Shown here piece after piece: positions 3,698 to 11,186 of a stretch of DNA of 37,621 nucleotides (its first letter is position 1; each line of letters starts with the position of its first letter). The translations under genes were made by a program, and so were the position numbers. Below the pieces are notes generated by a model. It saw nothing but the letters and a program-made list of their open reading frames with translations. It had not been told where the DNA came from and ran no database searches. The stretch is from Nevskiales bacterium (GTDB lineage: Bacteria > Pseudomonadota > Gammaproteobacteria > Nevskiales > Nevskiaceae): contig JAQVDP010000021.1 in assembly GCA_028698335.1 (NCBI GenBank), forward strand, positions 1-37,621, in the 5' to 3' direction.

Positions 3698-5239
3698 ATG
3701 GCCATCGACTGGCAACACTACCGCTGCACCGGCTACTTCGACGAGCTCTTCGAATCCCCCGGCACCCCTCGTGCGGCCGCGCACGACCTGACCCGCTATC
3801 TCGGTGAGCTGTCGCCGGCTGAACTGAGTGAACGCCGCCTTGCCGCGGACCTCGCGATCAAGGTCATGGGCGTGACCTTCACCGTCTATTCGGAAGGGCG
3901 CAACGTCGACCGCTCCTGGCCGTTCGACATCATTCCGCGCACCATCGCCCGCAGTGAATGGATCCGCACCGACCTCGGCCTGCAGCAACGGGTCCGGGCG
4001 CTGAATCACTTCATCCAGGACGTCTACGGCGACCAGAAGATCATCAAGGACCGGGTGTTTCCCGCCTCGCTGCTCAAGGAATCCGCCAACTTCCGCAAAC
4101 AGTGCATCGGCATGCGTCCGCGCCACGGCGTCTGGGCCCATATCTGCGGCAGCGATCTGGTCCGCGACATCGACGGCACCCTGTACGTCCTCGAGGACAA
4201 CCTGCGCGTACCGTCCGGCGTCAGCTACATGGTCGAGAACCGCCTGGTCACCAAGCGCGTGTTTCCGGAGCTGTTCCAGACCAGCTCGATCCTGCCGGTC
4301 GACGATTATCCGGCTCAGCTCTACGACATGCTGTCGGCGATGTCGCCCCGCCCCGGCAGCCGGCCGACGATCGCGCTGCTGACTCCCGGGATCTACAACT
4401 CCGCGTACTTCGAGCACTCGTGGCTGGCGCAGCAGATGGGCATCGAGCTGGTCGAAGGCAGCGATCTGCTGGTCGACGACGACGACTGCGTGTACATGCG
4501 CACGGTCTCGGGCCCGAAGCGCGTCGACGTCATCTACCGGCGCATCGACGACCTGTTCCTCGACCCCGAAGCATTTCACCCGGACTCGCTGCTCGGCGTT
4601 CCGGGGCTGATGCGCGCATGGGTCAAGAACAAGGTGGCTCTGGTCAACGCGCCCGGAGCCGGAGTCGCCGACGACAAGGCGGTCTATGCCTTCGTCCCGA
4701 AGATGATCCGCTATTACCTCGGCGAAGATCCGATCCTCCCCAACGTGCCGACCTGGCTGTGCATGCGCAAGAAGGAACGCGAGCACGTACTCGCCAACCT
4801 CGACAAGCTCGTGGTCAAACCGGCCAACGAATCCGGCGGGTACGGCATGCTGATCGGTCCGCGCGCGAGCCGCAGCGAGCGCGCGAAGTTTGCGGAACTG
4901 ATCAAGGCCAACCCGCGCAACTACATCGCCCAGCCGACGCTGTCGCTGTCGACCGCCCCGACCCTGACCGAGGACGGCATCGAGCCCCGCCATCTCGACC
5001 TGCGCCCGTTCATTCTCTCGCGCGGCGACTCGGTCTACGTCACCACCGGCGGCCTGACTCGCGTGGCGATGAACAAGGGCTCACTGGTGGTCAACAGCTC
5101 CCAGGGTGGCGGCGCCAAGGACACCTGGATCGTCGATCTGGACTCCGAACCCGAAGCCGCCGTCGTCAATACCAAGCCGGCCCGCAAGCGGGGCGTCCGC
5201 GGCAAACGCCCCCCCGCCGCCGCCAGGAGGGTCGCCTGA
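3698..5239 (+). CDS. Circularly permuted ATP-grasp type 2 ligase (DUF404/DUF407), Anbu system
   Basis: A 513-residue circularly permuted ATP-grasp protein, in families known as peptide/amide ligases (COOH-NH2 ligases) of unknown substrate. Signatures are SEGRNVDRSWPFDIIPR (65-81), the acidic VLEDNLRVPSGVSYMVENR block (about 164-182), and LVVKPANESGGYGMLIGP, which resembles the ATP-binding KP...GGxG loop. The domain ends near TWIVDLDS. A basic tail rich in Arg, Lys and Ala follows for the last 20 or so residues, which could bind acidic partners. The stop overlaps the next start (TGATG), so it is translationally coupled to the alpha-E gene. Comparative genomics places this pair with Anbu and transglutaminase-like proteins, all encoded within 8 kb here. 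No Shine-Dalgarno is obvious before the ATG. Confidence 0.9.
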   Translation: MAIDWQHYRCTGYFDELFESPGTPRAAAHDLTRYLGELSPAELSERRLAADLAIKVMGVTFTVYSEGRNVDRSWPFDIIPRTIARSEWIRTDLGLQQRVRALNHFIQDVYGDQKIIKDRVFPASLLKESANFRKQCIGMRPRHGVWAHICGSDLVRDIDGTLYVLEDNLRVPSGVSYMVENRLVTKRVFPELFQTSSILPVDDYPAQLYDMLSAMSPRPGSRPTIALLTPGIYNSAYFEHSWLAQQMGIELVEGSDLLVDDDDCVYMRTVSGPKRVDVIYRRIDDLFLDPEAFHPDSLLGVPGLMRAWVKNKVALVNAPGAGVADDKAVYAFVPKMIRYYLGEDPILPNVPTWLCMRKKEREHVLANLDKLVVKPANESGGYGMLIGPRASRSERAKFAELIKANPRNYIAQPTLSLSTAPTLTEDGIEPRHLDLRPFILSRGDSVYVTTGGLTRVAMNKGSLVVNSSQGGGAKDTWIVDLDSEPEAAVVNTKPARKRGVRGKRPPAAARRVA

Positions 5240-6174
5240 TGCTCTCGCGCGTCGCCGAAGACCTGTACTGGTTCGGACGCTACCTGCAGCGCGCCGAGAA
5301 CACCGCAAGGCTGATCTCGGTGCATTCGGACGTGGTGCTCGACCTGCCCCGGAAATTCGAGTTCGGCTGGTCGCCGCTGGTGGAGATCTTCGGCGTCGAC
5401 CAGCCCTTCAAGGCGGCATACGGCAACGATTTCAGCGAGGCCAATGTCGTCCGCTTCCTGATTCTCGACGAGGACAACCCCAGCTCGATCGCCAACTCAC
5501 TCAAGACGTCACGCGAGATCCTGCGCACCGTCCGCGAGGCCCTGCCGCAGGAGATCTGGGAACACCTCAACGACCTGCACCTGCTCATCGGCGAGCGCGG
5601 CGAACGCTACCTGCCCCGCAGCAAGCGTATCGAGCTGCTGCGCAAGGTGTCGGACACGGCGCTCTACACCTACGGCGTCCTGGTCGCGAACATGAGCCAC
5701 GACGTCGGCTTCCAGTTCATGCGCATCGGCACCAACCTCGAACAGGCGGACATGACCACGCGCATCATCGACGTGCGCACCTCGAGCCTGATCAAGCCGT
5801 CGATCGTCGACGAGGGGCTGCGCCCGTTCCAGAACATCCAGTGGATGAACGTGCTCAACTCGCTGACCGCCTACCAGATGTATCGGCGCCACGAGCGCAG
5901 TCGGGTCCGCGGCACCGCGGTGTTGAGCTACCTGACCCAGGACCGCGAGTTTCCGCGCGCGGTGATGTTCTGCCTCAACATGATCGGCAGCACCCTGCCG
6001 CATCTCCCGCCCAATCGCGCGATCGAACGCACGCTCGAACGCACGCGCGCGCTGGTCCGTGACGCCAACCTCGAACGTCTGGTCGAATCGGGCCTGCACG
6101 ACTGGCTCGACGAAATCCAGGTCGGCATCGGCCGCCTGCACGAATCGATCAGCTCGGCCTACTTCGATCACTGA
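5239..6174 (+). CDS. Alpha-E domain protein (DUF403), Anbu system
   Basis: A 311-residue, mostly alpha-helical protein. It begins MLSRVAEDLYWFGRYLQRAENTAR, the hallmark N-terminus of the alpha-E family (LxxxAexlyWlgRYlERAEntaR). Conserved blocks include LILDEDNPSSIANSL, AREILRTVRE-like TSREILRTVREALPQE, and DVGFQFMRIGTNLEQADMTTRIIDVR, with the helix-capping R-x-G-xx-LE-x-A-D. The biochemical role is unknown; the family always travels with the circularly permuted ATP-grasp ligase and may hold its substrate or form a complex with it (inference). AGGAGG at 5225-5230 is a strong ribosome binding site inside the end of the upstream gene. An open frame continues upstream of this ATG but overlaps the ligase and is not coding. 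Confidence 0.9.
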   Translation: MLSRVAEDLYWFGRYLQRAENTARLISVHSDVVLDLPRKFEFGWSPLVEIFGVDQPFKAAYGNDFSEANVVRFLILDEDNPSSIANSLKTSREILRTVREALPQEIWEHLNDLHLLIGERGERYLPRSKRIELLRKVSDTALYTYGVLVANMSHDVGFQFMRIGTNLEQADMTTRIIDVRTSSLIKPSIVDEGLRPFQNIQWMNVLNSLTAYQMYRRHERSRVRGTAVLSYLTQDREFPRAVMFCLNMIGSTLPHLPPNRAIERTLERTRALVRDANLERLVESGLHDWLDEIQVGIGRLHESISSAYFDH

Positions 6175-10800: not shown

Positions 10801-11186
10801 GCCGTCAGCTCCGCCCCCGCCGCATCGGCTTTCAGATACGGCGTCAGGTCCGCACGCAGGGCCGGATCGTAGTCGAAGGGCAGATGCTCGCAATCGGTCT
10901 CGATGAAGAAATCGAAAGGATTGATGACGGCCAGATCCGCCACCAGATCGACCGTGACCTTGAAGTCGGTCACCGTCTCGGGAAACACGACCCGGGCCTG
11001 CCAGTTGCCGAAAGGATCCTGCTGCCAGTTGATGAAATGGGGATCGGGATCGACATGCAGGGCGTAGCTGAGCACCCGTGTCCGCGTGTGCGGCGCAGGC
11101 CGCAGCCGGATCAGCTGCGGCGACAGATTGACGCGCCGATCGTAGCGATAGTGGGTGACGTGGTGCAGCGCGACGTGTATCGACAT
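7866..11186 (-). CDS. Transglutaminase-like / DUF2126 fusion protein, Anbu system
   Basis: A 1106-residue cytoplasmic protein with no signal peptide. Residues 1-110 form the bacterial transglutaminase-like N-terminal region (VALHHVTHYRYDRRVNLSPQ, IRLRPAP). The papain-like core follows, with C180 in RSGSCRDSAWLL, H229 in DLHAWAEVYVP and D245 in WLGLDPTSG forming an intact Cys-His-Asp triad. The remaining 800 or so residues are DUF2126, with recognisable blocks TMGGEPTFV, LTYGQGKWYPGESLPRW, EVNVQPARGWGEL and GTGGGNHVVIGG; the last resembles an ATP-grasp or glutamine-synthetase-like nucleotide loop. Length is normal for the family. Comparative genomics links this architecture with circularly permuted ATP-grasp, alpha-E and Anbu. 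A role as peptidase or amide-transferring enzyme acting opposite the ligase is inference. It is transcribed alone here. Confidence 0.92.
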   Translation of the reverse strand: MSIHVALHHVTHYRYDRRVNLSPQLIRLRPAPHTRTRVLSYALHVDPDPHFINWQQDPFGNWQARVVFPETVTDFKVTVDLVADLAVINPFDFFIETDCEHLPFDYDPALRADLTPYLKADAAGAELTAYLATIEPAGERTIDFLVGLNARLQQDISYLIRHEPGVQTPEETLTLRSGSCRDSAWLLVQILRHLGLAARFVSGYLVQLKPDVKPLEGPAGAPEDFTDLHAWAEVYVPGAGWLGLDPTSGLFADEGHIPVSATPEPSSAAPISGSVDPCEVGFSHEMSVQRIVETPRVTKPYTDAQWQAIDALGHDVDARLQADDVRLTMGGEPTFVAADDMQSAEWNTAAVGPVKQQRALDLALRLREQYAPEGLLTYGQGKWYPGESLPRWVYSLYWRRDGEPLWRLPPRLPSPERPADLLQANRFMLGLADRLEVDPRNVSEAYEDVLHHLVQERKLPVNLDPTDTRLKDAEMRAGLLRVFEHGLGKPRGYVLPVQRWQAQGRWMSERWALRSGRLFLTPGDSPIGLRLPLDSLPWAAPVAVPVNYPLDPMALPPHLPKPDPRRQPYLQLRGRATDAPRGQTLVPESEQPAPRTRGGFLNGSNVRTALAVEPREGWINVFLPPVASAEDYLDLVAAIEDVAAETGLPVRIEGYAPPSDSRLEVLRITPDPGVIEVNVQPARGWGELTDNIESLYETAHQCRLTTEKFLIDGRVVGTGGGNHVVIGGAQPADSPFLRRPDVLASMLRYWQNHPSLSYLFSGLFIGPTSQHPRVDEARDSQLYELEIALSRLPSKDEVVQPWLVDRVLRNLLTDLTGNTHRAEFCIDKLYSPDSPTGRLGLVELRGFEMPPHARMSLVQQLLVRALIAWFWRQPYARPLIRWGTQLHDRWMLPNDNWLDLLDVIADLNQAGFAFSPEWFAPHFEFRFPCHGVLRYEGIEMELRHALEPWPVLGEEPGGGGTTRFVDSSVERLQVKVRGLIPDRHQLTCNGRPMPLRATGAQGEYVAGVRFRAWQPYACLHPTIGVHSPLVFDIYDRWNGRALTGCTYHVAHPAGRNYDTFPVNSLEAEARRLARFEPHGHTPGPMQVRPEPLNPDYPATLDLRRFA

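What the first reader, a model, noticed from the sequence alone, without database searches (positions are those of the whole stretch)
3698..11186. Anbu / ATP-grasp / alpha-E / transglutaminase set broken into several transcription units
The circularly permuted ATP-grasp ligase, alpha-E, Anbu and TGase-DUF2126 genes are all present with intact key residues (Anbu T2, D18, K33; TGase C180, H229, D245). In many genomes these form one operon. Here the ligase and alpha-E are plus strand, Anbu and TGase-DUF2126 are minus strand and separately transcribed, and an isomerase gene is interposed. The system's substrate is unknown; it may ligate, trim or degrade a peptide tag. Split polarity gives a natural test of which parts must be co-regulated.
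Basis: partly seen in the sequence, partly recalled or inferred. Interest (0 to 1): 0.75.

Follow-up and report, generated by a model that had tools for sequence, protein, structure and literature searches.

The report
Split Anbu gene set, shared promoter type
Four genes for a little-understood bacterial peptide-making and peptide-cutting pathway, often one operon elsewhere, lie here in three separately switched units that appear to share one kind of nitrogen-response promoter and tend to be lost together in relatives, while the gene between them is a bystander.

Summary
In detail: ATP-grasp/alpha-E (+), Anbu (-), isomerase (+) and TGase-DUF2126 (-) lie as stated, with the stated residues. It is not a quirk of this genome: in the window's family 42 of 42 linked Anbu/alpha-E pairs are convergent; in a 200-genome phylum sample 43 of 59 linked pairs are same-strand within 2 kb.

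The isomerase is a resident neighbour: three system-free relatives keep it beside minC, a fourth keeps an ATP-grasp scar there. Of 58 family genomes 49 have all four system genes, 5 none, 4 a part.

New here: each unit has a sigma54-type -24/-12 box. In fetched loci, boxes of 10 bits or more precede ATP-grasp 32/41, Anbu 24/36, TGase-DUF2126 11/16 (remote copies 9/20), versus minC 0/43 and isomerase 1/28. The genome encodes RpoN. Outside this order most loci lack the boxes. Published work puts related operons under nitrogen or NtrC control.

Best reading: a split operon re-united as a sigma54, probably nitrogen-limitation, regulon. Co-expression and chemistry are inferred.

The parts
3634..3649 (+). 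sigma54-type -24/-12 box TGGCAAGTGTTTTGCT, beginning 64 nt upstream of the ATP-grasp start codon
   Evidence: 15.9 bits; 1 site this good in 1,528,440 background positions of the same genome; lies in the only clearly conserved block of the upstream alignment of 9 genus members; seen in the consensus scan
3698..5239 (+). circularly permuted ATP-grasp ligase (CP_ATPgrasp_2), 513 aa
   Evidence: relative of solved 3n6x, E 5.9e-160
5239..6174 (+). alpha-E (DUF403) protein, 311 aa, start overlaps ligase stop by 1 nt
   Evidence: model pLDDT 93, no PDB match at E<=0.001
6228..7013 (-). Anbu, 261 aa, T2/D18/K33
7188..7203 (-). sigma54-type box CGGCACAAGTTCTGCT, 175-190 nt upstream of Anbu (GG-N10-GC)
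   Evidence: 11.3 bits, the weakest of the three in the window; similarly spaced sites in several genus members, but G003 and G005 score under 8 bits and G001 and G008 have none of 10 bits
7257..7853 (+). DsbA-like protein, probably of the 2-hydroxychromene-2-carboxylate isomerase type; resident neighbour, not a system part
   Evidence: retained next to minC in genomes lacking the system
7866..11186 (-). transglutaminase-DUF2126 (putative amidoligase) fusion, 1106 aa, C180/H229/D245
11237..11252 (-). sigma54-type box TGGCAAGCCTTTTGCC, 51-66 nt upstream of TGase-DUF2126
   Evidence: 12.7 bits; in the conserved block of the upstream alignment of 6 genus members
2799..3569 (-). minC, conserved left border of the block
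11316..12206 (+). alpha/beta hydrolase, conserved right border of the block

Best explanation
This is a complete Anbu system of a split-operon type that is normal for the window's lineage (nearest named relative Sinimarinibacterium, Nevskiaceae). It has three transcription units: ligase+alpha-E, Anbu, and TGase-DUF2126. They are re-united at the level of transcription because each has its own sigma54 (RpoN) promoter, so one enhancer-binding protein, most likely NtrC under nitrogen limitation, can switch on all three. Proposed action: ATP-grasp with alpha-E, and the DUF2126 amidoligase, make amide bonds using ATP; the TGase domain transfers or cleaves at acyl bonds; Anbu hydrolyses the product. 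Together they form a nitrogen-starvation peptide/amide building and breaking cycle. The isomerase between Anbu and TGase-DUF2126 is an old chromosomal neighbour. Shown: gene identities, arrangement and its conservation, near all-or-none presence in the family, enriched -24/-12 boxes, presence of rpoN. Inferred: use of the boxes, NtrC as activator, nitrogen as signal, and all of the chemistry.
For: Arrangement. All-or-none: of 58 family genomes 49 have a hit to all four, 5 to none, 4 to a part (hits, contig-edge fragments counted as present); 38 of 52 Anbu-bearing family genomes have TGase-DUF2126 over 10 kb away or on another contig, yet keep it. Absence on a tree: 6 changes, at least 4 forced by well-supported branches. 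Empty sites and scar. Boxes of 10 bits or more in fetched loci: ATP-grasp 32/41, Anbu 24/36, TGase-DUF2126 11/16, against minC 0/43, minD 7/43, isomerase 1/28, hydrolase 8/34, alpha-E 3/41; Mann-Whitney p 7e-15, 6e-12, 2e-7 (rows are related, not independent). Chance per 250 nt is 0.036. Boxes are present at Anbu genes unlinked to the ligase (G013 11.6, G015 15.0, G018 16.9, G041 15.9). In 20 of the 54 same-strand phylum loci that I fetched, the box is at the ligase in 11 and at alpha-E or Anbu in none. RpoN in this genome: all three Pfam domains. Published, passages only: B. cenocepacia I35_5080-83 (DUF404/407, DUF403, TGase-like, large TGase-like) depends on NtrC, entries -8.2, -9.4, -9.4, -6.0 (apparently log2), and is named a common sigma54/NtrC target (PMC5491218). 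P. putida PP_2686-2688 rise 11- to 15-fold in wild type under nitrogen limitation (PMC7801951); PP_2685 (Anbu-like) and PP_2686-2687 are up in PMC3325844; PP_2685 and PP_2688 are up log2 4.4 and 4.0 on nitrate against ammonium (PMC8050072). A marine metagenome study links these domains with urea metabolism (PMC3597751).
Against: No expression data for this lineage. As bare consensus matches the window's boxes are not more than chance: 13 matches against 14.8 expected. Twelve of 36 Anbu genes lack a 10-bit box, among them G001, G003, G005, G008, G011, G016 and G022 of the family. Remote TGase-DUF2126 genes have one in only 9 of 20. Outside Nevskiaceae and cyanobacteria, Anbu has a box in 2 of 65 loci and the ligase in 6 of 47, so splitting does not generally come with sigma54 control. 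One empty site, G061, has a 12.4-bit site without the genes. No convincing NtrC site was found, and no GAFTGA-type activator was seen in 764,850 bases of the genome. In PMC7801951 PP_2686-2688 were still induced 14- to 20-fold in the rpoN mutant, and PP_2685 was flat in wild type (1.12). The paired co-loss tests are underpowered (p 0.25-1). Published assays on another Anbu found no peptidase activity and no partner (PMC6376114, passages).
Confidence: 0.63

Rival explanations
1. The arrangement is neutral chromosomal synteny: the genes drifted into separate units long ago and stay near each other only by inheritance, with no shared control.
For: minD, minC, the isomerase and the hydrolase are conserved in the same block without any evident role; split loci outside this lineage mostly have no boxes.
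Against: Boxes are enriched upstream of the three units and much less so upstream of the bystanders in the same block, and are present at Anbu genes that lie elsewhere. The genes come and go nearly as a set, even where TGase-DUF2126 is far away.
Confidence: 0.19
2. The units answer to sigma54 but to different activators or signals, so the ligase unit is nitrogen-controlled while Anbu and TGase-DUF2126 are controlled separately, or are read through from neighbours.
For: No common upstream activator site was found; the boxes differ in type (TGGC-N5-TTTTGC at ligase and TGase, CGGCAC-type at Anbu); G001 and G008 have TGase-DUF2126 75 and 96 bp upstream of Anbu on the same strand without a 10-bit Anbu box, suggesting one transcript; PP_2685 of P. 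putida did not follow PP_2686-2688 in one data set.
Against: In two other P. putida data sets the Anbu-like gene rises with its neighbours (passages).
Confidence: 0.13
3. The isomerase is a fifth functional member, for example a glutathione-dependent step of the pathway.
For: It lies within 1 kb of and divergent from Anbu in 19 of 32 family genomes with Anbu that were searched, and directly after alpha-E in G059, G066 and G069, which lack Anbu.
Against: It is kept when the whole system is absent (G002, G023, G061, G031), its upstream region has a 10-bit box in 1 of 28, and G001, G004 and G008 have the system without it there.
Confidence: 0.05

Closest known systems
Anbu operon of Pseudomonas/Yersinia (ATP-grasp, alpha-E, transglutaminase-like, Anbu; PMC5666114, PMC6376114, passages)
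   Same: ATP-grasp, alpha-E and Anbu with catalytic residues; ligase and alpha-E adjacent on one strand (79 of 80 ligase hits in 100 genomes)
   Different: Three units instead of one; TGase-DUF2126 as the local TGase; separate sigma54-type boxes
NtrC/sigma54-regulated DUF404/407-DUF403-TGase-large TGase cluster of Burkholderia cenocepacia I35_5080-83 (PMC5491218, passages)
   Same: Ligase, alpha-E and a large TGase protein under sigma54/NtrC control
   Different: One cluster; no Anbu mentioned in the passages read
DUF2126 cluster with natural ATP-grasp/alpha-E fusion (for example L080, G060, G064)
   Same: TGase-DUF2126 with ATP-grasp and alpha-E
   Different: Contains a ligase/alpha-E fusion in one open frame and a short TGase; G060 and G064 have no Anbu hit

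Membership tests
Anbu (ancestral beta subunit) | N-terminal Thr nucleophile with Asp and Lys partners | tested here: met
   T2, D18, K33, invariant in 9 aligned Anbus
Anbu (ancestral beta subunit) | Sequence relationship to solved Anbu structures | tested here: met
   5 distinct Anbu/peptidase chains at E 1.9e-82 to 5e-62
Anbu (ancestral beta subunit) | Hydrolytic activity | not testable with these tools
   Published assays on other Anbus were negative (PMC6376114, passages)
Classical four-gene Anbu operon | All genes codirectional in one operon | tested here: not met
   Strands +,+,-,-; convergent in 42 of 42 linked family pairs
Classical four-gene Anbu operon | Transglutaminase gene inside the operon | tested here: not met
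   53 nt between alpha-E and Anbu; TGase-DUF2126 lies beyond the isomerase, a short TGase on contig C7
CP-ATP-grasp + alpha-E peptide synthesis pair | PF14403 and PF04168 proteins encoded side by side | tested here: met
CP-ATP-grasp + alpha-E peptide synthesis pair | ATP-dependent amide ligase activity | not testable with these tools
   For the Y. bercovieri protein orthophosphate release from ATP was shown (PMC6376114, passages)
sigma54-dependent promoter | GG-N10-GC -24/-12 element at promoter distance | tested here: met
   Three sites, in conserved blocks at the ligase and TGase units
sigma54-dependent promoter | rpoN in the genome | tested here: met
   L253:6555-8027, Sigma54 AID, CBD and DBD
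sigma54-dependent promoter | Enhancer-binding site upstream | tested here: inconclusive
   NtrC-like sites no better than shuffles for two units (418 and 431 of 500); TGase unit 13 of 500, not conserved in five relatives
sigma54-dependent promoter | Transcription lost without RpoN | not testable with these tools
   needs an rpoN mutant

The most novel reading that the evidence does not exclude
An old operon was broken into three units in this lineage and its common control kept or rebuilt by giving each unit its own sigma54 promoter. The unit boundaries plus the set-wise losses then indicate from genome data alone that ligase/alpha-E, Anbu and TGase-DUF2126 form one nitrogen-limitation pathway, with ligase/alpha-E as the inseparable core and the other two movable.
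Probability: 0.53. Interest if true: 0.62.

Novelty: new variant of a known kind. Interest (0 to 1): 0.5.

Why it matters
The substrate and purpose of the Anbu system, kin of the proteasome, are unknown. Finding the same promoter type on physically separate units suggests which proteins must be made together and under what condition to look (nitrogen limitation). It also points to a named relative, Sinimarinibacterium flocculans DSM 104150, that carries the set, and to members of the same genus (G002, G009) that lack all four genes as natural controls.

Tried and rejected
Rejected: misassembly (same order in many genomes); a role for the isomerase (empty sites); sigma70 promoters (0 found); terminators (3 found, 3.5 expected in shuffles); NtrC enhancer sites. 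A first promoter pattern with the wrong spacer found nothing; a consensus of my own recall was then used, which agrees with the one printed in PMC5491218 (GGcacg-N4-ttGC, passages). Sigma54 activators were sought by a GAFTGA-type motif in 764,850 bases of the genome: none seen; that is about a sixth of the genome, so weak evidence. Alpha-E fold search: confident model, no PDB match at E<=0.001; a profile search of solved structures found none at E<=0.1. Natural ligase/alpha-E fusion model: failed, pLDDT 46, so no statement on the complex. The short TGase was not analysed beyond. Literature: 8 searches; none of their listings showed a paper on separate sigma54 promoters of a split Anbu set, but most subscription papers are not held, including Iyer 2009 and Hervas 2008 and 2009.

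Limits of the counts: the promoter rows are the loci I had fetched, not all hits, and rows with under 120 nt upstream were dropped; the 20 operons are 20 of the 54 same-strand loci and the remote TGase-DUF2126 copies are 19 of the family's 38 plus one from another family. The 10-bit threshold was chosen by me; the Mann-Whitney tests do not use it. Relatives are not independent samples. In one search, 48 of the isomerase rows were passed; the rest were weaker hits elsewhere. In one search I left out the lower-scoring alpha-E rows, which are mostly fusions, and the tool had cut that list: in G101 a fusion on the other strand lies nearer to Anbu, and ten of the eleven same-strand pairs at 2.4-3.9 kb have a short TGase on the opposite strand, so I count only the 43 pairs within 2 kb as operon-like. 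The Anbu tree used a short search, left 25 unlinked rows out of the count, and its 20 phylum rows were picked because they are codirectional.
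Full report
What is there. The four genes and the isomerase lie as described. Ligase and alpha-E overlap by one base and very likely form one unit. Alpha-E and Anbu are convergent, 53 nt apart. Anbu and the isomerase are divergent, with 243 nt between them. The isomerase and TGase-DUF2126 are convergent, 12 nt apart. The window is G000:C39 of a 4.3 Mb genome. The nearest named Anbu is that of Sinimarinibacterium flocculans, 88% identical.

Is the split unusual? In 100 genomes (own genome and relatives), alpha-E was found in 73, Anbu in 57, DUF2126 in 63 and the ligase in 72. 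In the window's family (58 genomes, 52 with Anbu), all 42 Anbu/alpha-E pairs within 10 kb are convergent and 10 are unlinked. In a 200-genome sample of the phylum (69 with Anbu), 59 have alpha-E within 10 kb: 43 same-strand within 2 kb, 11 same-strand at 2.4-3.9 kb, 3 convergent (one of them the window), 2 divergent; 10 are unlinked (rows left out are told in Tried and rejected). Among the 80 nearest Anbu loci in named genomes, 30 are convergent, 23 divergent, 3 codirectional and 24 have no ligase in the fetched stretch. A quick Anbu tree needs 5 changes between same-strand and split, against 15 or more in 100 shuffles. The split looks like an old property of this Anbu branch.

The block and its empty sites. 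The order <minD <minC, ligase> alpha-E> <Anbu, isomerase>, hydrolase> recurs in many fetched family loci and in G058 of another family; TGase-DUF2126 lies between isomerase and hydrolase in the window, G005, G010, G013, G021 and G032. In G002, of the same genus, both gene groups are missing and minC, isomerase and hydrolase stand together (205 and 64 nt apart). G023 and G061 are alike. G031 keeps a 23-codon ligase remnant, 74% identical, E 8e-6, between minC and isomerase. G009, G065, G068 and G077 have minC next to the hydrolase with no isomerase; in G020 only minD and minC were recognised. So the isomerase is a neighbour, and the system was deleted at least once.

All or none. Of 58 family genomes, 49 have hits to all four genes, 5 to none, 4 to a part; three of the four partial genomes are 76, 88 and 90% complete, and the fourth, G011, lacks DUF2126 but has a stand-alone TGase directly upstream of the ligase. 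Contig-edge fragments (for example in G037) count as hits. TGase-DUF2126 lies more than 10 kb from Anbu or on another contig in 38 of the 52 Anbu-bearing family genomes. On a minD/minC tree of 44 rows the absence needs 6 changes, at least 4 forced by well-supported branches; paired sign tests are underpowered. Outside the family, ligase/alpha-E occurs without Anbu and DUF2126 (8 genomes) or with DUF2126 only (9 genomes), so ligase/alpha-E is the core.

The promoters. Aligning upstream regions in the genus (9 for the ligase, 6 for TGase-DUF2126), the only clearly conserved block before the ligase is TGGC-N5-TTTTGC in most rows, and the same kind of block stands before TGase-DUF2126; several Anbu genes have GGCAC-type sites with the same GG-N10-GC spacing. 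Scored with a sigma54 matrix, 10-bit sites lie within 250 nt of ligase 32/41, Anbu 24/36, TGase-DUF2126 11/16 and 9/20 remote copies. Controls: minC 0/43, minD 7/43, isomerase 1/28, hydrolase 8/34, alpha-E 3/41. Chance per 250 nt is 0.036 in 764,850 bases of the same genome. Of eight empty sites, seven have no site of 8 bits or more; G061 has one of 12.4. In 20 fetched codirectional loci the box is at the ligase in 11, at alpha-E and Anbu in 0, within 300 nt. In the 65 other non-cyanobacterial loci Anbu has a box in 2 (ligase 6 of 47); in 10 cyanobacterial loci in 1; in 5 Nevskiaceae loci in 4. The shared boxes are therefore a feature of this lineage, not of splitting in general. The genome encodes RpoN.

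What it does. Published work, of which I saw passages only, places related clusters in the nitrogen response: NtrC-dependent and listed as sigma54/NtrC targets in B. cenocepacia, nitrogen-induced in P. putida, and linked to urea metabolism domains in metagenomes. One P. putida study also shows induction of PP_2686-2688 in an rpoN mutant and no rise of the Anbu-like PP_2685 in wild type; two others show PP_2685 rising. The chemistry is inferred from the families: ATP-grasp and DUF2126 ligases, TGase-type acyl transfer, Ntn hydrolase. Pull-downs and peptidase assays on another Anbu were negative. The alpha-E model is confident (pLDDT 93) and all-helical, with no significant solved relative by fold or sequence; the fusion model failed.

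Verdict. Observation confirmed; interpretation partly right. Known system, new regulatory arrangement.

Noticed in passing
L143:6018-6086 (G031): 23-codon ATP-grasp remnant between minC and the isomerase, a deletion scar of the system.
   Followed up: yes
L162 (G011): Stand-alone transglutaminase directly upstream of the ligase, with a sigma54-like box of 12.1 bits, in a genome without a DUF2126 hit.
   Followed up: partly
L107 and L062: Loci titled Klebsiella pneumoniae MAG (Anbu 49% identical) and Deltaproteobacteria MAG (70%, nested among Nevskiaceae in the tree); possibly mis-binned contigs or transfers.
   Followed up: no
G051:C284, G055:C129, G057:C293: Second Anbu copies, 45% (G051, G055) and 68% (G057) identical to the window's.
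   Followed up: no
G019, G030 and G017, G028, G040, G048 between alpha-E and Anbu: About 5.1 kb (G019, G030) or 1.4-1.5 kb (the others) of extra DNA between alpha-E and Anbu; content not examined.
   Followed up: no
5239-6174: Alpha-E is predicted with high confidence as an all-helical protein without a significant match among solved structures.
   Followed up: partly
G022:C227, G060, G063, G064, G067, G070: Clusters of TGase-DUF2126 with a ligase/alpha-E pair lying in a single open frame (natural fusion); the five genomes other than G022 have no Anbu hit.
   Followed up: partly
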